From a virus: a stretch of 64,000 nt of DNA. Of this stretch, positions 3,820 to 64,000 are shown piece by piece; the first letter of the stretch is position 1, and each line of letters begins with the position of its first letter. The notes below the pieces were generated by a model. That model searched no databases and had not been told where the DNA came from. It saw only the letters and a program-made list of their open reading frames with translations. The translations under genes were made by a program, and so were the position numbers. Where the stretch lies: the IMG/VR virus record IMGVR_UViG_3300036818_000070, positions 16,166-80,165 of that record; one strand, 5' to 3'.

Positions 3820-5511
3820 TCAGGTGATGTGGGTGGCCAGCTCGGCGGTTGCCTGGCTGGGGTCCTGTAGCTCGAAGTCGTGCACTGGCACGACCGCCGA
3901 GCAGTAGTCGGCTAGGTACTTGAAGGGGCCGTTACCGATCGCGATGCCGAACAGTCGCACGCCCATCTCTATGAGCTGGTCGCGCAGCCGCTTGTCCTCG
4001 GGACCGAAGCTGGCCTCGCCGTCGCCGATCATCACAAGATCGGCCTTACGGAAGTCGGCAGCGTCCTCCATGATCTTCACGGCGCCAGCGACACCTTGGA
4101 TTGGTGATGTGCCGCCGCCGAAGAAGTGCGACGCCATGTCAACGATCTCCTGCGCGCCGAGCGCCTTCTTCGCGGGCATGACCCACGCCTCGACCTGTCG
4201 GGCGTCAGCGAACTCCACGCAAGCGAAGTCACGCTTCTCCAGCCGCGCGATGTGAAGAAGACACATGGCCACTGCGCGAGCCCAGATGTTGCGCTCGCCG
4301 TTCATTGAGTAGCTGCCGTCCACGACGACCACAATCGGGCCGCGTCCGGCATGCTCCTCGCCGACGGTGGCGAAGCACAGCAGCTCCTGGCTGGCGTAGC
4401 GGACAAGAAAGTCGTCCTCGGTGTCCTCGTCGGCCAGCAGCGCCAGCTCAGCTGGCAGCACGCGCTGAAGGTTGTCGCCGAACTCAACGTCAACGATCTC
4501 GTCGTTGCCGCCGACGACTCGCTTGGACCGCTGGAAGCGGATGTCACGGTCAAGCCGACCGAAGCGCTCAGCCATCGCTCGGAGCTGCGGGTTGTTCGCC
4601 CACATCTCAGCGATCGTCAGCGCCTGCTCGGGCGACTCGTACGTCGGCTCTCCGGCGCCGAAGCCAGCACCGAAGCTCGGGATGCCAGCGGCGCCGCTTG
4701 CGGCCTCGCCAGCCGCAGCAGCAGCAGCCTGGATCGCCTGCATCGCAGCCGCCGACATCGGCGTCTGGCTTGCGGCAGCGCCGAGCGCCGCCTGCTGTGC
4801 TGCGCGTCGCTCCTGCACCGCTGCGCCGATCTGCTGCTTGAGCACGTCGGGGACAGGCAGTCCCTGCTGGTGCAGGTCTTTGGCTTGCTGGCGCATGAAG
4901 TCGAGCTGGTCGCTTGCGTCCTGCGCCTGCTGCGCGTGCTGCTGATACTCCTCGGCCTCGCGCATCTGCTGCTCAAGCTCGTCGCCGAGCACTTGCTTCA
5001 GTGCGTTGACGGCGGCCATTGTCGCGATAGCTGCCGTGGTCGGATTGTCGCGCGTGATGTTGCGCGCCTGCGCGTGATCGTCGGTGGTCATCAGCTTCGG
5101 CATGACACGCTTGTGCAGTTCGACGCCCGGATCAACGGGCTCGACCAGCTCGGGCATGTCATGCGTGTGATAGCTGTAGAACACGTCGCGCGTCAGCTTG
5201 TCCCAGACGCTATAGGTGGGCGCGTTCTCTCGTGCCTCGCGAGCGGCCTTCATCGCCTGCTGATAGGCGACGAACTCGTCGGGCGACGCTGTGGTCATGT
5301 CGATCGGGTCAGGGTCCGGGACATCTGGCGTGACCACTGGAGCGTCCTCGATCGCGATGCGACGAAACCTGGGGGAGTCGTCGGTGTAGTTGTCGAACTC
5401 CATCGAGTCGATCGAATCGTGGGTCACCACGCTATCGGGCAACTTCAGTCGCGACGTACCGATCTTGCGACCGCCGCGACCAAGAAAGTCGGTCAGTGAA
5501 ATGATCGGCAC
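3820..5511 (-). CDS. VWA-domain protein, partner of the MoxR-type ATPase
   Basis: 563 residues. The C-terminal third (about 390-560) is a von Willebrand A domain with the metal-ion-dependent adhesion site: DGSYS in IVVVVDGSYSMNG (about 398), the threonine loop GGGTSP (about 468), and the aspartate in MIGDGEASFG (about 498). The N-terminal half is helical, with a Gln/Ala-rich stretch at about 165-285. This matches the CobT/ViaA type of VWA protein, which acts with a MoxR AAA+ ATPase as a remodelling or chaperone pair. The MoxR gene lies two genes upstream in the same operon. The target is unknown. Confidence 0.85.
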   Translation of the reverse strand: MPIISLTDFLGRGGRKIGTSRLKLPDSVVTHDSIDSMEFDNYTDDSPRFRRIAIEDAPVVTPDVPDPDPIDMTTASPDEFVAYQQAMKAAREARENAPTYSVWDKLTRDVFYSYHTHDMPELVEPVDPGVELHKRVMPKLMTTDDHAQARNITRDNPTTAAIATMAAVNALKQVLGDELEQQMREAEEYQQHAQQAQDASDQLDFMRQQAKDLHQQGLPVPDVLKQQIGAAVQERRAAQQAALGAAASQTPMSAAAMQAIQAAAAAAGEAASGAAGIPSFGAGFGAGEPTYESPEQALTIAEMWANNPQLRAMAERFGRLDRDIRFQRSKRVVGGNDEIVDVEFGDNLQRVLPAELALLADEDTEDDFLVRYASQELLCFATVGEEHAGRGPIVVVVDGSYSMNGERNIWARAVAMCLLHIARLEKRDFACVEFADARQVEAWVMPAKKALGAQEIVDMASHFFGGGTSPIQGVAGAVKIMEDAADFRKADLVMIGDGEASFGPEDKRLRDQLIEMGVRLFGIAIGNGPFKYLADYCSAVVPVHDFELQDPSQATAELATHIT

Positions 5512-5720: not shown

Positions 5721-6941
5721 TCAGTCCTCGTCGTCGTCCGCGCCGGAGAGCTGTTGCTGCGCCCACTCGTCAATGCGCTTGATCTCGGACGCGACCTCTT
5801 CGAGCATCGTGACGTCCTGGCCCTGGTCTTTGCCGGTGCGGATCTGCGAGTTGACCTCCTTGCCCAGCGTTCGTGCCTGGCGGATCAGCTTGAAGCCTTC
5901 GCCGAGCAGGTCGCCGGTCGCAGTGTCGTCGCCCTGGGCCACGACCAACTTCGGGCGCAGCTCCTCCATCTGGGCGAGAATCGGTTCGAGTGCCTCGCGC
6001 GCACGCTCAGCCTTGCGGGTGAACACGCTGGCGAACTCCAGCACGACCTCGCGGGCGCTGTCGGCGTCGTCGGGGTGGTTCCAGGCCATGTGCTGGCACG
6101 GCAGGAAGTCATCGGCCACAACATCGTCGCGCCCGTGCATCCATGCGTGAGCCTTGACGACCTTCCACATCTGACCAATGCGGCGCTGTGATGGCGGATG
6201 ACCGGCCTCGGTCCACTTCTGCTGCGCGTCCACCATGATCTGGCGGCACGCGTCGTTGACCGTGACCTTGTGGATCTCGGTACGGATCGCCTTGATCTCG
6301 TCCAGCGTCAGCGGCTCAAGGTTCGATGTGTCCAGCCCGTTGAGCTGGAAGTCGAGCTGAAGATCGGTGACAGCACGCCGACCCTCTGGCGTGCGCACTT
6401 CGCGCACGAACTTGGTGATGCCGATACGGTCACGGAACGCCTGCAAGTCCTCGCGGTCCGGTAGTTCGTTGCTCGACATGAAGATCGTCAGGAGCTGCGA
6501 GCAGTCGAGCACCGTGCCGCCGGTCTTCAGCACACGGTTCGCGAGCAGGTCGAGCAGCGGGTTGAGCATCGGCGGCGACGCCTTGAAGATCTCGTCCGCG
6601 TAGCCGAAGTTCGCCGACGGCAGGTAGCCATCGGTCAATCGCGCGATCTGACCAGCCTTCATCGCCATGATGTCGCGCGGACCGAGCACCTCGTCGGCAC
6701 TCTGGTCCTTCGCGAAAAGGTGCGAGAACAGCTTCATGTCGGTCAGGCAGTGATCGACCAGACCTTCGATCATCCACGTCTTGCCGGTGCCAGGAGGGCC
6801 GAGGAAGAGCGTGTCAACGCCCGAGACGAGCGCGACCATTGCCAGGTCGATGTCCTCGTTGCGCTCGACGTTGTGAGCCTTGAGCCAGCCCGTGATTTCG
6901 TTGAATCGGGTGAGCATGGGGGATGCAGCGGTTGTGGCCAT
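5721..6941 (-). CDS. MoxR/RavA-type AAA+ ATPase
   Basis: 406 residues. Walker A GPPGTGKT (48-55), Walker B FGYADEIFKA (112-121), sensor-1 MSSNE (155-159), and a lid region rich in charged helices. The ADEIFKASPPMLNPLLDLL segment is typical of RavA-like MoxR proteins. The C-terminus (about 330-406) is a charged coiled coil ending in an acidic tail. MoxR ATPases work with VWA proteins, and one is encoded downstream. The ATG at 6941 follows the shared GGAGTCTGGCGAC leader; a promoter/operator palindrome precedes it. Confidence 0.9.
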   Translation of the reverse strand: MATTAASPMLTRFNEITGWLKAHNVERNEDIDLAMVALVSGVDTLFLGPPGTGKTWMIEGLVDHCLTDMKLFSHLFAKDQSADEVLGPRDIMAMKAGQIARLTDGYLPSANFGYADEIFKASPPMLNPLLDLLANRVLKTGGTVLDCSQLLTIFMSSNELPDREDLQAFRDRIGITKFVREVRTPEGRRAVTDLQLDFQLNGLDTSNLEPLTLDEIKAIRTEIHKVTVNDACRQIMVDAQQKWTEAGHPPSQRRIGQMWKVVKAHAWMHGRDDVVADDFLPCQHMAWNHPDDADSAREVVLEFASVFTRKAERAREALEPILAQMEELRPKLVVAQGDDTATGDLLGEGFKLIRQARTLGKEVNSQIRTGKDQGQDVTMLEEVASEIKRIDEWAQQQLSGADDDED

Positions 6942-6967
6942 TGTCGCCAGACTCCAGTTCGTTTGTT

Positions 6968-6987
6968 GTAGTGTAGCGCTACGCTAC
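6968..6987. promoter_or_regulatory. 20-bp near-perfect palindrome, promoter/operator for the MoxR operon
   Basis: Two 10-bp arms (GTAGTGTAGC and GCTACGCTAC) form a palindrome with one mismatched pair. On the minus strand it contains the hexamer TACACT (6975-6970), suitably placed as a -10 for the MoxR gene whose start is at 6941. It overlaps the stop codon of the upstream gene at 6984. It probably doubles as a regulator-binding site. Confidence 0.5.
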
Positions 6988-7691
6988 AGCCGGATGGATG
7001 TTTCGTGTGACTGTGCGAGGGAGCCGACTGTCACAACGTCGGCGCAGGCCCAGTGAAACGCCTCGGCCTGCTCGCGTTCGATCAGCGTGCGCTGCCAGTT
7101 AGCGGATGACAGCCCCTCGTGGCGCACGCCGCCGATGTCCTCCGACCACACGTCGCCGATGAAGCCCCAGCACGAATCGAGCGTGCCTCCGTCCTCGTCT
7201 TTGACCACGTAGCCGTAGACCTCGCCGTTGTACCAGTGCGCGAACTCCTCGGCGTTCGCTTCGACATAGCTGCGAGCCATCGCCGGGTCGCCGGAGAATT
7301 GACCGAGCAGCTCGTCGGCCGTGAACATCCACGCCAGGTTCGCGCGCTCGGCATCGTCGGTCACGTCGAGCGACGCGGTACCCGAACCGTGGTTGTTCGA
7401 CGCCCAGTCGAGCAGCACGACAAGTTCGACGTCGTGGTCGGCGCCGAGCGCCTGTTCGAGTGTGCGCGCCTGCCAGTCTTCGCGCTCGAAGTCATCGCTG
7501 ACGTCTATCTCAAGCTCCGGCTCGGCGATCTCCTCGAAACCGTCCGGCACGTGGCCGTTATAGCTGTGATCGCCCCAGCCGACGCGCTTGCCGACCTCGT
7601 CGCGCTCGACTAGCGGGTTGTCCATGCCGCCCTCGTCGTAGTACAGCTCGACCGTGAGCCCTGCGTGCTCGAAGGTGTCGATGGGCTCCAT
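6984..7691 (-). CDS. conserved acidic hypothetical protein
   Basis: 235 residues, strongly acidic. It includes EFAHWYNGEVYGYVVKDEDGG and LDSCWGFIGDVW, a pattern I associate with uncharacterised plasmid and phage proteins carrying GEVYGY...DSCWGF. The ATG at 7691 overlaps the upstream stop (TGATG) and follows GAGGA; a GTG one codon earlier is possible. Function unknown. Confidence 0.7.
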   Translation of the reverse strand: MEPIDTFEHAGLTVELYYDEGGMDNPLVERDEVGKRVGWGDHSYNGHVPDGFEEIAEPELEIDVSDDFEREDWQARTLEQALGADHDVELVVLLDWASNNHGSGTASLDVTDDAERANLAWMFTADELLGQFSGDPAMARSYVEANAEEFAHWYNGEVYGYVVKDEDGGTLDSCWGFIGDVWSEDIGGVRHEGLSSANWQRTLIEREQAEAFHWACADVVTVGSLAQSHETSIRL

Positions 7692-25969: not shown

Positions 25970-26542
25970 ATGGACGTCAAGTCTGAGGTCGCGACGGTGG
26001 AAGCAGCCGTCAAGCCGACCTTCACTCAAGTAGAGAAGTTCGTTGCGGCGTTCTCGCCGCTCATCGCCGTGCTCGTCGGCTATGTCGCCACGCTGGTCGC
26101 CAAGGACTTCCCTGGCGTCAGCATCAACCAGGACGAGCTGATCTGGGTGTTTATCGTGGCGTTCGCCGGAGTGGTGCTGCTCGTCATCCGCTGGCTGGAG
26201 GCGAAGCACAGGGCGATCTTGTCCGACATTCAGACCGCCGCGCTGGCGCCAGTGCATTTCGCGGAGGGAATACTCGGCGATGTCACGTCGCCATTGACCG
26301 AGGCCGCTGTGGTCTCGCTCATCAAGAAGGAGCTGGAGTCACATTCCAGCGAGATCGACGCGATCATCACCGACCTGGAGAAGCAGCTCCCTACCCAGGT
26401 CGTGCAGGTGCTTCAGAACCTGCTGAAGGACGTCAATCTCGGCGATCTGCTCAGCGGCAAGGTGAACCTCGGAGACCTCCTGGCTGCCAAGATTACCCCG
26501 GCACCGGTCGCCCCGGTTGCTGCACCCGTCACCCAGTCGTAA
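25970..26542 (+). CDS. holin with C-terminal extension
   Basis: 190 residues, ATG after GGAGTCACA. Two membrane segments (FVAAFSPLIAVLVGYVATLVA and ELIWVFIVAFAGVVLLVIRWL) separated by a short loop, then a 110-residue cytoplasmic tail with a coiled coil and a repeated VNLGDLL motif (two copies). The layout, after the lysins, fits a holin. Confidence 0.65.
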   Translation: MDVKSEVATVEAAVKPTFTQVEKFVAAFSPLIAVLVGYVATLVAKDFPGVSINQDELIWVFIVAFAGVVLLVIRWLEAKHRAILSDIQTAALAPVHFAEGILGDVTSPLTEAAVVSLIKKELESHSSEIDAIITDLEKQLPTQVVQVLQNLLKDVNLGDLLSGKVNLGDLLAAKITPAPVAPVAAPVTQS

Positions 26543-26547
26543 GGGGC

Positions 26548-26961
26548 ATGGCGCCCGGTATTCGCACGGAGTGGCACTTGGCTGAGCTAGTGACAACCGG
26601 AGACCCGTTCGAGGGCACCGCCTACTCGGGCGTCGAGATTCGTCTCGACGGCTCGGTGGCGGAGCTGTCGATCAACCTCCAGCGCCTGCTCGACCAGGAG
26701 GAGGGCCTGTTCAAGTTCGGGCTCACGTGCGACCTGAAAGACGCTGGGCAGGACTGCCGCTCCTGCCCGATGGCCACGGTCAACCCAGACGAGCGTCGGT
26801 CGGCGCTGTGTCGTCTCGGGAAGGACCAGTGCGCCCTGTCGGAGCGCATCGAGACGGTGCACGCTCCGCTGCAAGAGATCGGTGAACACGTCGGCGTGTT
26901 CATGGAGATGGGCCAGCTCGACGGCGAGTACGCCGAGCTGCTGGAGGCGGTGGGGCTCTGA
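26548..26961 (+). CDS. Cys-rich hypothetical protein
   Basis: 137 residues, ATG 3 nt after the holin stop. A cluster of five cysteines in CDLKDAGQDCRSCPMATVNPDERRSALCRLGKDQCAL suggests a metal site. No family recognised. Confidence 0.6.
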   Translation: MAPGIRTEWHLAELVTTGDPFEGTAYSGVEIRLDGSVAELSINLQRLLDQEEGLFKFGLTCDLKDAGQDCRSCPMATVNPDERRSALCRLGKDQCALSERIETVHAPLQEIGEHVGVFMEMGQLDGEYAELLEAVGL

Positions 26962-27131
26962 TGGACCCCATAGAGCAGCCCACCGCCACGGCTCCGCGTC
27001 CCGGCGGCCTGCCGCCATCCCCGGCTGCCCAGCGAGATCTCGCGCTGGCGCGACTCTTCACCGCGCTGGCTTCGCTGGCCAGCAAGGTGGAGAAGCTCGT
27101 TGATCGAGAGCTAACGGATGCTGGTCGCTGA
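26961..27131 (+). CDS. small Pro-rich/helical protein (56 aa)
   Basis: The ATG at 26961 overlaps the upstream stop (TGATG), and the frame ends at 27131, overlapping the next gene. It has a proline-rich start (TATAPRPGGLPPSPA) and a helical end (LARLFTALASLASKVEKLVDRELTD). Unknown function; the overlaps argue that it is translated. Confidence 0.5.
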   Translation: MDPIEQPTATAPRPGGLPPSPAAQRDLALARLFTALASLASKVEKLVDRELTDAGR

Positions 27132-27645
27132 GCGCGATCAGATCGAGGCGCTCGACTCCGGCGCTCTGTTCTCACCCTGCCGCCGCTACAGGTACCTCCT
27201 GTGGCGGCGGTGGGACGAGAGCTTGCCGACGATGGCGCTCATCGGCCTCAACCCGTCAACTGCCGACGAGCAGAAGGACGACCCCACCATCCGGCGCTGC
27301 ATCGGCTACGCCAGGGACTGGGGCTTCGGCGCGCTGCACATGCTGAACATCTTCGCATGGCGCTCGACAATGCCGAGCGTGCTGAGACAGCAGGGAGGCG
27401 CAGCGGTGGGGCCGCGCAACAACGAGTACATCGCCGAGGTCGTGGGCAACGCCCACACCACGGTCTGCGCCCGGGGGACGCACGGAGCGCTTCGTGGGCG
27501 CAGCGTGGAAGTACGGAAGCTCCTCGCTTCCCTTGGGGTAGTGCCGGTGGTTCTGAAGCTGACGAAGGACGGCTACCCCAGCCATCCGCTGTACCTGCCT
27601 AAGAACCTGACGCCGGTCGCATGGCCGTACCCTCGTGGCCTCTGA
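27118..27645 (+). CDS. DUF1643-family protein
   Basis: 175 residues. FSPCRRYRYLLWRRWDE..PTMALIGLNPSTADEQKDDPTIRRCIGYARDWGFGALHMLNIFAWRST and the later G-x-P-x-HPLYL motif match the DUF1643 family, common in phages and bacteria. The biochemical role is unknown. It sits between the lysis and packaging genes. Confidence 0.85.
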   Translation: MLVAERDQIEALDSGALFSPCRRYRYLLWRRWDESLPTMALIGLNPSTADEQKDDPTIRRCIGYARDWGFGALHMLNIFAWRSTMPSVLRQQGGAAVGPRNNEYIAEVVGNAHTTVCARGTHGALRGRSVEVRKLLASLGVVPVVLKLTKDGYPSHPLYLPKNLTPVAWPYPRGL

Positions 27646-28078
27646 GCGCCAGCCACGCCATCAGGTGACGACCCGCTATCTCCGCGTGCCAGCGGAAGAC
27701 TGGGCGGCCGTGCGCCAGGGCATCAAGACCGAGTTCCGCACGCGACCCCGCGAGGGCGTGCTCACCAAATGTAACGTGCCAACTCCAGTCGTGGCGTACG
27801 CGACACGGCGGGTCGCCGGGGCGACGCCGACCGCGCTCATGGTGCTGGAAGAGCGCCGCTACGAGCCACTGTTCTATCTGGCCGATGATGCCGACGGATT
27901 GGCGCGCGAAGGCTTCCCGACCTATGACCACTTTCGTCGCTACTGGCGCAAGCGAACGGGTGACAGCTACAGGCCGACGGCGCGGGTGTACGTCTGGCGC
28001 GTCCGGCCGTGGCGTGCCGGTGATGGCCACGCCTTCGGCGCCTCGCTGCTCCACGAACTCTACGGGGAGCATCTATGA
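27635..28078 (+). CDS. ASCH-like protein
   Basis: 147 residues. TTRYLRVPAEDWAAVRQGIKTEFR...PVVAYATRRVAGATPTALMVLEERRYEPLFYLADDADGLAREGF...RPTARVYVWRVRPW has the layout of an ASCH domain (PUA-like RNA-binding fold). Its start overlaps the DUF1643 stop. Role unknown. Confidence 0.5.
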   Translation: MASERQPRHQVTTRYLRVPAEDWAAVRQGIKTEFRTRPREGVLTKCNVPTPVVAYATRRVAGATPTALMVLEERRYEPLFYLADDADGLAREGFPTYDHFRRYWRKRTGDSYRPTARVYVWRVRPWRAGDGHAFGASLLHELYGEHL

Positions 28079-60392: not shown

Positions 60393-61439
60393 TTGCCTCA
60401 GCCGCAAGCGCGGCAGCAGCCCCAGTTGGGGCCGCCGCCCATTCCCGGCGAGACTGTGCAGGAAGGGGCGCGCTGGCGACACCACGCGCCGACGACTGCG
60501 CAGGTCGCCGAGTGGTTCAAGTCGGTCCCGCTCGATAAAGAGTTCGCCGACGCCCACGACCGCTTCATCAGCGGCGTAGTCATCATCCCGCAGTCGGGCA
60601 AGGTCAAGTACGCCACCGCCAACGGCACAACCGAGCGGTACGAGATGACCTTCACGCCCTACATGCAGATCGGCACCCGGCTGGCCTATGCGCACCAGCT
60701 CGCCGACGAGCGAGAGTTGGTGCTGCGCATCGCACCGCTGCCAGTTCCGCGCCTCGACAAGCAGGAGTCGCCGTACCACAACGCCAACCTCGGCGAGGGT
60801 CTCTGGTGGCATGTCGTCAAAGACGGCGAGGGCAACATCGTCCGCTATCTCTGCGCCACCCAGGCGGTGCAGTTCTACGAGCGCGACGAGTACTACAGGG
60901 CCGAGCGCCACCCGGACACGAAGGCCGTCGTCTGGGAGAGCATCATGCCGCTGCTCGAAGGCCAGGGCACCAAGCAGGTCTCCGGCGGCACCGACATGAA
61001 CGCCGTGATGAAGGCCCAGACCGGCGCCATCGGCCGCGCGCTCGGCGTCGCGGGCATCTTGGTGCTCGGCACGGGTATCGCGACCGCGGAGGACATGCAG
61101 GAGTTCAGCGGGCAGGCCGCCGCCGCGCCTGAGCTGCCAAGCGTCGCGGCGGCGCCGACAGAGATCGCCGCCGGGACCGCGCCCGAGCCGCCCGAGGAGC
61201 GCGAGGAGCGCCTCACACACTTCCGCGCGCGGGCGATGGCGGCCGAGACCCGACTCCACGAGCTGGGCGCCGCTGGCACCTGGAATTCGTGGTGGGATTC
61301 ACGCGCCGGAATCGAGGGCTGGCAGGGACTCGGAGACGTGCCGCTCGAAGCGCTGGAGGGCATCGTGGTGCGGCTGGATCAGGCCGTCAGCAATGCCGAG
61401 GCCCAGGGTCCGGCGGTCGAGGCCGCCCCGGTCCAATGA
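60393..61439 (+). CDS. Erf-like single-strand annealing protein
   Basis: 348 residues from a TTG with GAAAGG about 12 nt upstream. The middle (SGGTDMNAVMKAQTGAIGRALGVAGILVLGTGIATAEDMQEFSGQ) is a recombinase-family signature: phage Erf/Sak proteins have a T-x-A-x-GRAL-x-x-x-G motif followed by a short acidic site. The N-terminal half is a beta-alpha domain and the end is a helical tail. Probably pairs complementary single strands in phage recombination. Confidence 0.55.
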   Translation: MPQPQARQQPQLGPPPIPGETVQEGARWRHHAPTTAQVAEWFKSVPLDKEFADAHDRFISGVVIIPQSGKVKYATANGTTERYEMTFTPYMQIGTRLAYAHQLADERELVLRIAPLPVPRLDKQESPYHNANLGEGLWWHVVKDGEGNIVRYLCATQAVQFYERDEYYRAERHPDTKAVVWESIMPLLEGQGTKQVSGGTDMNAVMKAQTGAIGRALGVAGILVLGTGIATAEDMQEFSGQAAAAPELPSVAAAPTEIAAGTAPEPPEEREERLTHFRARAMAAETRLHELGAAGTWNSWWDSRAGIEGWQGLGDVPLEALEGIVVRLDQAVSNAEAQGPAVEAAPVQ

Positions 61440-61735
61440 GCGCGACCGTGGTCAGCATCAACCAGCGCAAGCTGCTCACCAAGCGGGAACTGGCCGACTA
61501 CCTCAAGCGCAGCGAGCGATGGATTGAGCTGCACCAGAAGGAGGACGGCCTGCCTGTCGCAGAGCGCGACAGATTCGGACACAACCTCTATAGCCTTGAC
61601 GAGGTCAAGGTGTGGCTCAAAAGCCCCAAGAAGCCGAGCACGGCCGAGCAGGTCGAGCAGCTTCAGCGGGAAGTGCAAGAGCTGCGCGAGTTCGTAATCG
61701 GGAGACTAGGCAGTGACGATCGTTCGCAGGGGTGA
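61436..61735 (+). CDS. xis: excisionase/HTH protein
   Basis: 99 residues, ATG overlapping the upstream stop. KLLTKRELADYLKRSERWIELHQKEDGLPVAERDRFGHNLYSLDEVKVWLKSP is the MerR-type winged helix seen in excisionases, followed by a coiled coil. Its end overlaps the integrase start by 23 nt. It should direct excision and/or bind the att site. A long N-terminal extension in the same frame overlaps the upstream gene. Confidence 0.65.
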   Translation: MSATVVSINQRKLLTKRELADYLKRSERWIELHQKEDGLPVAERDRFGHNLYSLDEVKVWLKSPKKPSTAEQVEQLQREVQELREFVIGRLGSDDRSQG

Positions 61736-62765
61736 TAAGTACGGCGCTCGGGTCTATGACCGGAGCGCCGGGAAGCAGCGCTGGCTGGGCACGTTCGACA
61801 CGGTGGAACTGGCGGAAGCCGCCGAGGCCGACGCCACCCTCACGGGAGTGCCGACCGTCGCTCAATGGGGGCGCGTGTGGCTATCTGACTACGCGCGTCC
61901 CGCCGCGGCCACGAGAATGAATCACCGCAGCGCCGTGGCCCGCATCACCAAGGACCTCGGCTCGCGGGCGCTGGACGACATCGGGCGTCGCGAGGCGCGT
62001 CAGCTCGCGCAGGGCTGGCCGGAGGGCACCTACCGCGTCGCCCGCGCGATGTGGGGCGACGCGGTGCGCGACGACATCGTCACGATCAACCCGTGGACCG
62101 AGCTGCGGATGCCGCAGCCGCGCGGACGCAAAGACCTCGACGCGCTCACCGAGCAGGAGGTACTGGGGCTCGGCGCCATCGCGATGCGCGTCCACGGCAA
62201 TGGATACGGCATCGAGGCGGCGGCGATCGTACTCACGCTCGGCTTCGTCGGCGTGCGACCCGGTGAACTGTGCGCGCTGCGCCACGAGGACCTACTGCTC
62301 GACGCCGCCGAGCTGATCGTGTGCGGCAGCATCGACGCTACGGGCAAACTCAAGTCGCCCAAAAACGGGAAAGAGCGCGTCGTCACGGTCCCGCCGTCGG
62401 CCGCGAACGCGCTGGCGCAGATACCTGACTCACTCGACGGACTGCTCTTTCACACGTCGCGTGGCCTGGCGCTCAACAAGGGCAACTTGAACTACGTCTG
62501 GCGGCCCATCGCCAACGGCTGGCATGCGCAGGGCGGTCGGAAGATCACGATGTACGACCTGCGGCACGCCGCCGCCACACACTTCATCGAGCGCGGCGTC
62601 ATCTCCAGTGACGTCGCCATCCAGCTCGGACACACCGACGGCGGCCGACTCGTGGAGCAGCTTTACGGACACCCGAAGCAGCAGCCAGCGCGCGACCGCC
62701 TGAAGATGGCCTACGCGACCGGCGCTCCGGCGCGCGAGCGACAGTTGAAGGGGTACAGCTCGTGA
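61713..62765 (+). CDS. int: tyrosine integrase
   Basis: 350 residues, GTG start. N-terminal arm-binding and core-binding domains, then the catalytic domain with Arg I in GVRPGEL (about 188), YDLRHAAATHF (box II, where the usual His is Tyr and Arg II is kept), LGHTDG (His III, about 311) and the nucleophile Tyr in LYGHP (about 321). Integrates the phage by site-specific recombination. attP should lie to its right. Confidence 0.9.
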   Translation: MTIVRRGDKYGARVYDRSAGKQRWLGTFDTVELAEAAEADATLTGVPTVAQWGRVWLSDYARPAAATRMNHRSAVARITKDLGSRALDDIGRREARQLAQGWPEGTYRVARAMWGDAVRDDIVTINPWTELRMPQPRGRKDLDALTEQEVLGLGAIAMRVHGNGYGIEAAAIVLTLGFVGVRPGELCALRHEDLLLDAAELIVCGSIDATGKLKSPKNGKERVVTVPPSAANALAQIPDSLDGLLFHTSRGLALNKGNLNYVWRPIANGWHAQGGRKITMYDLRHAAATHFIERGVISSDVAIQLGHTDGGRLVEQLYGHPKQQPARDRLKMAYATGAPARERQLKGYSS

Positions 62766-63064
62766 GTTCTAGCATCGGCGAACTGACGGCGAAGCGAGCA
62801 CGTCTTGACGCCGAAATTGAGGAGTTGCTCGCTAGCTACACGGACGAGGTCAACGAGCGCTTCGGCCGGAACCTGAAGTGGGCGCGCGCACGTCGCGGCC
62901 TCAGCCAAGGGGCGCTCGCCGCACAGATCGGCCTGACGCGCACCAGCGTCACGAACATCGAGGCTGGGCGTCAGGCTCCTTCGTGGGCTACGGCCGTGCT
63001 GATCGCGCAAGTGCTCGACCTGGCAATCGGGGTGTTCTGCGCCGAACCACCAGAGGAGGGTTGA
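62762..63064 (+). CDS. Xre-family helix-turn-helix regulator
   Basis: 100 residues, GTG overlapping the integrase stop. GRNLKWARARRGLSQGALAAQIGLTRTSVTNIEAGRQAPSWATAVLIAQVLDL is a clear Xre/Cro-type helix-turn-helix. Alone near the integrase, it is a candidate repressor or antirepressor of lysogeny; the dyad promoters at 13.37 and 60.33 kb are candidate targets. Confidence 0.75.
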   Translation: MSSSIGELTAKRARLDAEIEELLASYTDEVNERFGRNLKWARARRGLSQGALAAQIGLTRTSVTNIEAGRQAPSWATAVLIAQVLDLAIGVFCAEPPEEG

Positions 63065-63126
63065 TGCCTTCGCATGACACGAACGACGCGCTCTGCGGCG
63101 GCACGGGAAAGGACCCGAACCCATGA
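63064..63126 (+). CDS. 20-residue coupled peptide
   Basis: ATG overlapping the regulator stop (TGATG) and a TGA that overlaps the next ATG (ATGA). The peptide MPSHDTNDALCGGTGKDPNP has no motif. The exact start/stop overlaps on both sides suggest it is translated to couple its neighbours. Confidence 0.35.
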   Translation: MPSHDTNDALCGGTGKDPNP

Positions 63127-63605
63127 ACTTCCCAGAGCGCTTCAAGCGACACAACCAGATCATCAAGGTAGACCCGGTGTCCTTCGCCTTTGATGGCGGC
63201 AAGATCATCCCTGGTGGCACTCCTGAGTACGAGGAGGCCAAGGCTAAGTTCGAGGCGGCGCAGACGCCAGGTGCAACCGATGCGGGACGAGGCTGTGATG
63301 CACGGGAACTCAGGGCCTACGTTCCGCTGGCCGAGGACGGTCCCGGCGGCCCGATCGGCGTCTATATCTGCCCGCTCTGTGGGCAGGCCCTCGGCGCCGC
63401 TGACGAGCGCTGCAACAGCGGCATCCACGAGGGGCCGGACAGCGACTACGAGAAGCGGCCGACCGCCGTCCTCTCGACGCAGTTCGTCGCCGAGCTGAGG
63501 GGCGCGACACACCTCGTCGCCGAACTGAGGGGCATTGAAAGTATCCGATCGGACGTGTTGAATAGTGCGAACAGGGATGAAGACAGTCGCGAGCCCGGCT
63601 CGTAA
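63123..63605 (+). CDS. zinc-ribbon hypothetical protein
   Basis: 160 residues. VYICPLCGQALGAADERCNSGIHEG (C-x2-C...C) suggests a zinc site. The N-terminal part has an alpha/beta segment (IKVDPVSFAFDGGKIIPGGTPEYEEAK). No known family. Last full phage gene before the right end. Confidence 0.6.
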   Translation: MNFPERFKRHNQIIKVDPVSFAFDGGKIIPGGTPEYEEAKAKFEAAQTPGATDAGRGCDARELRAYVPLAEDGPGGPIGVYICPLCGQALGAADERCNSGIHEGPDSDYEKRPTAVLSTQFVAELRGATHLVAELRGIESIRSDVLNSANRDEDSREPGS

Positions 63606-63629
63606 CTGTCCACCAAGGAGTCTGGCGAC

Positions 63630-63863
63630 TTGTCTGCTACCGAAGCTTCGGTAACAACGCAGAGCACAAATGTGCCGAATAGCAGGAATTTGCGGGGCGG
63701 CTTACTAAGCCGTCTCCACTGGTTTCAACGGTCCGCGACACAGTCGCGGACCGTTTGCGTTCAGGGGGACGTTCGGATGTACATGCCGCTGTCCTCAGCG
63801 GACCTTCCGATTCGTCGTGTGGGTATAAGTGGCGGATCCGGACGGAGGAGGCGATGGAGATGA
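63630..63863 (+). CDS. possible att-interrupted phage gene
   Basis: 77 codons from a TTG that follows an exact copy of the shared leader AAGGAGTCTGGCGAC (63615-63629). The N-terminus (MSATEASVTTQSTNVPNSRNL...) reads as a plausible start, but the frame then crosses a terminator and the host gene's upstream region, so the C-terminal part is probably host-derived or read-through. The attR junction may lie inside. Confidence 0.3.
   Translation: MSATEASVTTQSTNVPNSRNLRGGLLSRLHWFQRSATQSRTVCVQGDVRMYMPLSSADLPIRRVGISGGSGRRRRWR
63727..63755 (+). terminator. terminator-like hairpin at the prophage edge
   Basis: AACGGTCCGCGAC (63727-63739) and GTCGCGGACCGTT (63743-63755) form a 13-bp stem with a 3-nt loop, then TTTGCGTT. 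It insulates the adjoining cellular gene from the integrase operon. Confidence 0.7.
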
Positions 63864-64000
63864 GGTTCGTGGCGTTTGTCGGCACGGAGGGCGGGATGCC
63901 CACCGAGGCTGTCGAGGAGATGAATCGCGACTGGCCGGCGTACGCGCAGATGCTCGAGCGCCGCGGAGGTCTGCGGCTGGGCCGAGAGCTCAGGCTCCCC
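63854..64000 (+). CDS. cellular YCII-domain protein, partial
   Basis: The ATG at 63854 (GGAGGAG upstream) opens a frame that runs off the right edge: MEMRFVAFVGTEGGMPTEAV... with WPAYAQMLERRGGLRLGRELRL. This fits the N-terminus of the YCII-related (DGPF) family, small enzymes common in actinobacterial genomes and not typical of phages. It marks the host side of the prophage boundary. Confidence 0.6.
   Translation, partial: MEMRFVAFVGTEGGMPTEAVEEMNRDWPAYAQMLERRGGLRLGRELRLP

What the first reader, a model, noticed from the sequence alone, without database searches (positions are those of the whole stretch)
63615..63863. A phage gene may be split by integration at the right end
The early leader AAGGAGTCTGGCGAC precedes a TTG start at 63630, but the frame runs into the terminator and the cellular gene within 78 codons. 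If attP lies inside this gene, integration would cut it and replace its C-terminus, as in phages with integration-dependent immunity. The missing part would be at the left end, outside the window.
Basis: inference. Interest (0 to 1): 0.5.

Follow-up and report, generated by a model that had tools for sequence, protein, structure and literature searches.

The report
Prophage end in a tmRNA gene
This is the right-hand end of a virus inserted in a soil bacterium's tmRNA gene; a reading frame does run across the insertion point, but it looks mostly like recombination-site DNA rather than a split gene, and not like a known immunity switch.

Summary
An exact copy of this phage's repeated 15-nt start leader lies at 63615-63629, before TTG 63630; the frame runs 77 codons through the prophage junction, a strong hairpin and into a cellular frame. 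The window is the right end of an 80,165-bp IMG/VR record whose left end I read: it begins in the 3' end of a tmRNA gene (ssrA). A 12-bp core, GCCGTCTCCACT, is shared: attR at window 63709-63720, attL at record 29-40.

Evidence for a real split gene is mixed. For: exact leader, no better start, the specified frame open in only 1.0% of shuffles. Against: 111 codons from 63630 to record 282 score below all 195 gene stretches compared; putative integrase arm repeats and hairpins fill the region; a colinear relative lacks the module; no homologue found. Integration-dependent immunity is not supported: no family hit in the frame, no ssrA-like tag, and the HTH gene ends 644 bp before the core. Best reading: an ordinary tmRNA-site attP that may be translated, not shown to encode a functional protein.

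The parts
61436..61735 (+). excisionase-like small HTH protein (99 aa), overlapping the integrase start
   Evidence: PHROG 66 'excisionase and transcriptional regulator' E 6e-4, but the best hit is PHROG 57 'terminase small subunit' E 3.1e-6; Pfam HTH_17 15.2 bits, below its cutoff of 27; a 40%-identical protein stands before the 54%-identical integrase of G160:C80
61713..62765 (+). tyrosine integrase of the tmRNA site
   Evidence: Pfam PF00589 E 8.5e-12, PHROG 1 E 7e-41; a core-like GTCTYCAC lies near the int stop in 4 of 11 genome relatives and 2 of 15 viral relatives examined
62762..63064 (+). HTH regulator, 100 aa, GTGA overlap with int; the only repressor-like gene between int and attR
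   Evidence: Pfam HTH_31 E 3.4e-13, PHROG 2439 E 1.3e-11
63123..63605 (+). 160-aa protein with a CPLCG motif, no family; same frame as the leader ORF
   Evidence: 0 hits in Pfam, PHROGs and NCBIfam; codon score 0.22
63615..63629 (+). start-associated leader AAGGAGTCTGGCGAC; of 3 plus-strand copies of its core the only one with a long frame behind it
   Evidence: codon score -0.241 for 63630..L003:282
63635..63645 (+). putative arm-type site TGCTACCGAAG; exact direct copy at L003:157-167, copies matching 8 of 11 bases at L003:182 and 192 and, inverted, at 168
   Evidence: a direct match that long in 8 of 2000 shuffles; GGTAGC repeats at similar offsets in L088
63646..63656 (-). inverted copy of the putative arm site, one mismatch
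63690..63699 (+). TTGCGGGGCG, inverted copy CGCCCCGCAA at L003:50-59, each 9 bp from the core
   Evidence: an inverted match that long in 26 of 2000 shuffles
63709..63720 (+). attR core GCCGTCTCCACT, identical to the attL core L003:29-40 in the tmRNA 3' end
   Evidence: tmRNA RF00023 39.4 bits (gathering score 47; match cut at its 5' side), E 1.3e-14, at L003:1-41
63727..63755 (+). hairpin on the host side of the core, probably the displaced ssrA terminator
   Evidence: -25.6 kcal/mol for 63721-63770, z -4.67; not called by the U-tract scan
63854..64000 (+). start of a frame on the host side, open at the window end (MEMRFVAFVGTEGG...)
   Evidence: no Pfam or NCBIfam hit for the 49 aa held

Best explanation
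The place is the attR of a prophage inserted by its own tyrosine integrase into the 3' end of the host tmRNA gene. The 12-bp core equals the last bases of the tmRNA gene, so attL keeps an intact tmRNA 3' end, and the hairpin that follows the gene, probably its terminator, is left at attR (ends and core shown by sequence; terminator role inferred). The DNA from 63635 to the core, and the first ~165 bp after the core at the left end, is the rest of attP: arm-type repeats, an inverted repeat round the core, and a phage-borne hairpin that may replace the lost ssrA terminator (repeats and folds shown; function inferred). The frame from TTG 63630 is an open run through this site. The leader suggests that ribosomes may start there, so in the free phage attP may be translated as a low-information leader up to the GTGA overlap with the next gene; in the lysogen this run would be cut off. 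Nothing shows that the product is a functional protein or a repressor.
For: tmRNA 3' end at the left end of the record; same core at both ends. 21 genome contigs hold the same 33-base tmRNA end, 16 labelled as Solirubrobacter or its family or order and 5 as other actinobacterial groups, with an ARAGORN tmRNA in 19 of 21 (in L017 and L023 the gene would run off the fetched piece). The right end of the window joins the left end of the record in the free phage: in the colinear relative G456 the homologue of window 60393-61439 is directly followed by the homologue of L003:486-1046. A core-like GTCTYCAC lies within 50 bases of the int stop in 4 of 11 genome matches and in 2 of 15 viral loci examined, of 54 returned. 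Repeats and folds. Codon score of 63630..L003:282 is -0.241; all 195 overlapping stretches of that length from the 31 training genes are higher (minimum -0.235, 1% -0.003). A plus frame of 100 aa or more starting within 120 nt upstream crosses 3 of 6 relatives' cores; such a frame crosses 725 of 2100 antisense points.
Against: The leader is exact and sits where 8 of 9 minus-strand copies start frames with positive scores. Dinucleotide shuffles keep this specified frame open in only 1.0% of 5000. No canonical in-frame start with a good Shine-Dalgarno site follows the core. In L088, a relative with the same core, a frame with a weak HNH match (15.5 bits, cutoff 21.4) also has its only early starts upstream of the core. 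The arm motif is not specific: with up to 2 mismatches it occurs 36 times in the record, and the hexamer is absent near 5 of 6 related cores. No same-species empty site was found. The U-tract scan found no terminator on either side.
Confidence: 0.7

Rival explanations
1. A real 179-codon phage gene starts at TTG 63630, spans attP and is cut by integration; the lysogen makes at most a 77-aa chimera, or a nonstop message that ends at the ssrA hairpin.
For: Exact leader with 9-nt spacing; specified frame open across attP in 1.0% of shuffles; GTGA overlap with the next gene, which is conserved in G456; last 39 codons score 0.12; similar geometry in L088.
Against: 111 codons score below all 195 gene stretches, and L003:283-486 scores -0.048 with 4 of 330 stretches as low; no homologue or family found in the searches made (one search gave two 29-base matches at E 0.3 in Xanthomonas phages); no such gene between the two neighbours in G456; long frames across cores are common.
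Confidence: 0.22
2. Integration-dependent immunity as in BPs: attP inside the repressor gene, and integration removes a degradation tag.
For: attP lies in an open frame near int and an HTH gene; the frame is shorter in the lysogen.
Against: No family hit in the frame; joined form ends REAACW; the HTH gene 62762-63064 lies wholly on one side of the core and is whole in both forms.
Confidence: 0.02
3. The leader is a relic or a moved copy left after a gene was lost when the integration module was acquired; nothing is translated from it.
For: The module is absent between the same neighbours in G456; the 10-mer GGAGTCTGGC is absent from G456, though the 8-mer GGAGTCTG occurs 5 times there; this copy is on the other strand from the 8 start-associated copies and uses TTG where they use ATG.
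Against: All 15 bases are intact, and it follows a stop codon closely, as several other copies do.
Confidence: 0.25

Closest known systems
Cluster K1 mycobacteriophage int/attP at the tmRNA gene (Adephagia, CrimD, Anaya; PMC3203893, section 14 and part 1 of section 15 read, other passages seen)
   Same: Tyrosine integrase, core equal to the tmRNA 3' end, 11-bp putative arm-type repeats on both sides, a stem-loop between core and distal arms; the same phages also carry repeated start-associated sequences.
   Different: Core 12 bp against 24 bp; attP lies 3' of int here, 5' in K1; other arm and leader sequences; an HTH gene and a 160-aa gene lie between int and attP here.
Integration-dependent immunity of BPs and of MabB/MabN prophages (PMC4557955, PMC9934374; passages read)
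   Same: attP inside an open frame near int; frame shortened by integration.
   Different: Here the frame has no repressor domain and no ssrA-like tag, and the HTH gene is untouched.
Start-associated sequences (SAS) of Cluster K (PMC3203893)
   Same: Short asymmetric repeat containing GGAG, a few nt before mostly ATG starts, strand-biased.
   Different: GGAGTCTGGCGAC instead of GGGATAGGAGCCC; a 45-nt upstream alignment shows no strong extension, and inverted repeats were not searched for.

Membership tests
Integration-dependent immunity (BPs type) | attP core inside the repressor coding sequence | tested here: not met
   The core is in a frame with no HTH or other family hit; the HTH gene ends at 63064, the core starts at 63709
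Integration-dependent immunity (BPs type) | phage form ends in an ssrA-like tag (C-terminal AA) | tested here: not met
   Joined frame ends ...AREAACW
Integration-dependent immunity (BPs type) | prophage form shorter than phage form | tested here: inconclusive
   77 against 179 codons, but the frame is not a repressor and may not be a gene
Integration-dependent immunity (BPs type) | prophage form confers immunity | not testable with these tools
   needs strains
tmRNA-site tyrosine-integrase prophage | tyrosine recombinase near one att site | tested here: met
   943 bases between int stop and core
tmRNA-site tyrosine-integrase prophage | direct-repeat core identical to the tmRNA 3' end at both ends | tested here: met
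tmRNA-site tyrosine-integrase prophage | arm-type repeats on both sides of the core | tested here: inconclusive
   Repeats present, direct 11-mer match in 8 of 2000 shuffles; same hexamer at similar offsets in 1 of 6 related cores, L088 (of the others L048 ends soon after its core and L049 looks like an attR, so each can show one arm only); binding untested
tmRNA-site tyrosine-integrase prophage | empty site in a related strain | tested here: inconclusive
   The same tmRNA end is followed by other sequence in 21 contigs, but the host species itself was not found and those sites were not checked for other elements
Cluster K1 mycobacteriophage | attP 5' of int, K1-type core | tested here: not met
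   attP is 3' of int here; the K1 core-like sequences read in three K1 phages differ
SAS-like start leaders | repeat with Shine-Dalgarno core a few nt before starts, mostly on one strand | tested here: met
   8 of 9 minus-strand copies before ATG frames; 3 plus-strand copies, one before a long frame
SAS of Cluster K | 13-bp sequence GGGATAGGAGCCC | tested here: not met
   The repeat here reads GGAGTCTGGCGAC

The most novel reading that the evidence does not exclude
attP is itself a translation unit: in the free phage, ribosomes loaded by the start leader at 63615 read through attP to the start of the next phage gene; integration into the tmRNA gene cuts this run and leaves a message that ends without a stop codon at the ssrA terminator, so that translation of the right-end operon reports whether the phage is integrated and, in the lysogen, the truncated product is handed to tmRNA, the product of the very gene used as insertion site.
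Probability: 0.1. Interest if true: 0.65.

Novelty: new member of a known kind. Interest (0 to 1): 0.3.

Why it matters
It fixes both ends of a temperate phage of a probable Solirubrobacterales host (inferred from the tmRNA end), identifies the insertion gene, and points to a family of tmRNA-targeting integrases in such hosts. It also corrects a tempting analogy: an open frame over a core in high-GC DNA is common and is not enough to call an immunity switch. If the start leader at attP proves active, integration would change phage translation in a way I know of no example for (recall, not a search).

Tried and rejected
Integration-dependent immunity: rejected on the sequence of the frame and its end. 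tRNA as insertion gene: ARAGORN found no tRNA or tmRNA in the window or in L003, since the tmRNA is cut by the record's end; Rfam found it. Rfam at gathering threshold found nothing in the window. The lone opposite-strand SAS copies of Cluster K1 phages lie far from int and attP in the three phages looked at, so they are no parallel. Relatives of the integrase by short peptides in viral contigs: none, found later with an alignment. In the phage collection the integrase has only matches under 60% identity, the best 27-28%. Relatives of the 160-aa protein: none in viral contigs or phages, one weak match (E 4.2e-4) in 232 genomes. Relatives of L003:480/486-1043: 3 loci in viral contigs, none in 232 genomes or in phages. 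Ten viral contigs hold the leader before an ATG, one copy each; 8 of the 10 went into (L059 and L060 did not) and gave no integrase match, which the tool warns shows little; I took them as chance. Host by its right flank: 39 of 232 genomes gave matches, those listed being scraps of 21-52 bp. L087 has frames over its core too, but the long one has several later starts, so it says nothing. Literature searches; one search listed no paper with the word Solirubrobacter among the 8 shown of 998. I make no claim that anything is absent from print.

Full report
What the window is. The window is bases 16166-80165 of an 80,165-bp IMG/VR virus record, so its right end is the record's right end. I fetched the left 16.4 kb as L003; L003 coordinates equal record coordinates.

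The two ends. L003 begins CGCGACCGCGGACGCGGGTTCAATTCCCGCCGTCTCCACT. Rfam reads bases 1-41 as the 3' end of tmRNA (RF00023, 39.4 bits, E 1.3e-14, cut off at the 5' side and so below the gathering score of 47). The longest exact direct repeat between window 63600-64000 and the first 300 bases of the record is GCCGTCTCCACT, at window 63709-63720 and L003:29-40. Left flank plus core plus right flank gives a tmRNA 3' end followed by a strong hairpin (63727-63755; -25.6 kcal/mol for 63721-63770, z -4.67). The same 33-base tmRNA end occurs in 21 genome contigs, 16 labelled Solirubrobacter or its family or order, 5 other actinobacterial groups, with an ARAGORN tmRNA in 19 of 21; in L017 and L023 the gene would run off the fetched locus. 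In all 21 another sequence follows the core. So the right end is attR in ssrA. The host species was not found: its right flank gave only short matches, the listed ones 21-52 bp, in 39 of 232 genomes of the order.

The phage form. The right end of the window joins the left end of the record in the free phage. A colinear relative, G456 (82,353 bp), supports this: the homologue of window 60393-61439 lies at 26217-27158 and the homologue of L003:486-1046 follows at 27199-27759. What lies between them in our phage, about 2.7 kb (2726 bases), is missing there; of frames of 75 aa or more in that stretch none matched G456 at E 1e-8. In our phage the order is a small HTH protein (61436-61735), integrase (61713-62765), HTH regulator (62762-63064), 160-aa protein (63123-63605), leader (63615-63629), attP, then the gene at L003:486. 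Integrase and regulator are supported.

In the lysogen it is 63630-63863, 77 codons. In the joined phage form the same frame is open for 179 codons to L003:489, and its TGA overlaps the GTG of the next gene at L003:486, the start placed by the G456 homologue.

Is it a gene? For: the leader is real. GGAGTCTG occurs 9 times on the minus strand of the record, and 8 of these 9 have an ATG 6-12 nt behind GGAG that opens a frame of 28-406 codons with score 0.10-0.48; the ninth (record 15594) has no start within the range scanned. On the plus strand there are 3 copies, and only 63617 has a long frame behind it. The specified frame over 111 codons stays open in 1.0% of 5000 dinucleotide shuffles, and any of the three plus frames in 3.7%. 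No in-frame ATG, GTG or TTG with a good Shine-Dalgarno site follows the core. Against: the 111 codons 63630..L003:282 score -0.241. Of 195 overlapping stretches of that length, cut from the 31 genes that also trained the score, none is as low; the lowest is -0.235, the lowest 1% lies at -0.003. L003:283-486 scores -0.048, with 4 of 330 stretches as low; the last 39 codons score 0.12. No homologue or family was found for the frame or its parts; 63606-63720 gave two 29-base matches at E 0.3 in Xanthomonas phages. Open frames across such points are common: 3 of 6 related cores have a plus frame of 100 aa or more that starts within 120 nt upstream (L050b, L087, L088), and 725 of 2100 antisense points in our phage's own genes have one. 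Antisense DNA of high-GC genes tends to be open, so this control is generous to chance, while the shuffles are not.

attP anatomy. TGCTACCGAAG lies at 63635 and L003:157, with copies matching 8 of 11 bases at L003:182 and 192 and inverted copies at 63646 (one mismatch) and L003:168 (8 of 11). A direct match of 11 between the arms occurs in 8 of 2000 shuffles; an inverted match of 10, as TTGCGGGGCG/CGCCCCGCAA 9 bp from the core on each side, in 26 of 2000. Copies with up to two mismatches occur 36 times in the whole record, so the motif alone is not specific. L088, probably unintegrated (one core found in its record, well inside it; integrase 41%), has GGTAGC at -58, -49, +120, +129 and +153 from its core; ours has GCTACC at -75, +127, +152 and +162 and GGTAGC at +141 and +314. 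The other 5 related cores have none, though L048 ends soon after its core and L049 looks like an attR. L003:41-120 folds at -32.6 kcal/mol (z -3.98), L003:66-112 at -22.9 (z -4.32), L003:150-235 at -50.6 (z -6.96); L003:118-150 (z -1.61) and window 63620-63708 (z -1.37) are not unusual. The pattern scan found no U-tract terminator there or at the ssrA hairpin. Cluster K1 mycobacteriophages have the same plan: tmRNA core, 11-bp arm repeats, and a stem-loop between core and P3 (PMC3203893, sections read).

The integrase family. In 232 genomes of the order 11 matches at E up to 1e-25 were found; 4 of the 11 have a GTCTYCAC within 50 bases of the int stop, after it in three and 19 bases before it in the second integrase of L050. 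An alignment query returned 54 viral loci, of which I examined 15 (27-51% identity); 2 of the 15, L087 and L088, have it 47 and 29 bases after the int stop, and in 2 others (L094, L095) the record ends at the int stop. In these relatives int lies directly beside the core; in our phage 943 bases with two genes lie between.

In L088 a 205-aa frame begins with an ATG overlapping the int stop (a GTG stands one codon earlier), crosses the core, and carries a weak HNH match (15.5 bits, cutoff 21.4); its next start lies after that motif. Its first 74 codons also score poorly (-0.12; 8 of 149 stretches as low), its last 131 better (0.12; 27 of 116). L087 has later starts and says nothing.

Immunity. 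In integration-dependent immunity the core lies in the repressor gene, the prophage form is shorter and the phage form carries an ssrA-like tag (PMC4557955 and PMC9934374, passages). Here the frame has no family hit, ends REAACW, and the HTH gene is whole in both forms. Not a member.

Conclusion. attR of a prophage in ssrA, with attP inside an open frame that has a real start leader but non-coding codon use. Most likely an ordinary recombination site that may be translated; a functional split gene is possible (about 0.2), an immunity switch very unlikely.

Noticed in passing
window 742, 6955, 8040, 8964, 9267, 10069 (minus strand); L003:12374, 13573, 15594 (minus strand); window 63617 (plus): Repeated leader GGAGTCTGGC(GAC), in 8 of the 9 minus-strand copies just before an ATG, like the SAS of Cluster K phages but with another sequence; the 10-mer is absent from the colinear relative G456.
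   Followed up: partly
L003:11152-12177 (minus strand): A second tyrosine recombinase (PF00589 E 2.8e-22), 49% identical in G456, which gave no match to the tmRNA-site integrase; perhaps the ancestral recombinase of this phage group.
   Followed up: partly
L050 (G215:C203), 4162-4833 and 6671-7639, minus strand: Two related integrases on one contig, each with a GTCTCCACT core at its end, perhaps two elements in tandem at ssrA; the frame of the second integrase runs over its core.
   Followed up: partly
L088:4068-4685: Weakly HNH-like frame whose only early starts lie upstream of the attP core.
   Followed up: partly
L025, L026: Two IMG/VR contigs that carry tRNA genes and a tmRNA (tag DKSYALAA) with the same 31-base 3' end.
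   Followed up: no
window 63123-63605: 160-aa protein with a CPLCG motif and no family; it shares the frame of the leader ORF after its TAA stop.
   Followed up: partly
L003:209-224: CTATTCGGCCGAATAG palindrome with a 9-base copy GCCGAATAG at window 63674: a possible second class of site at attP.
   Followed up: no
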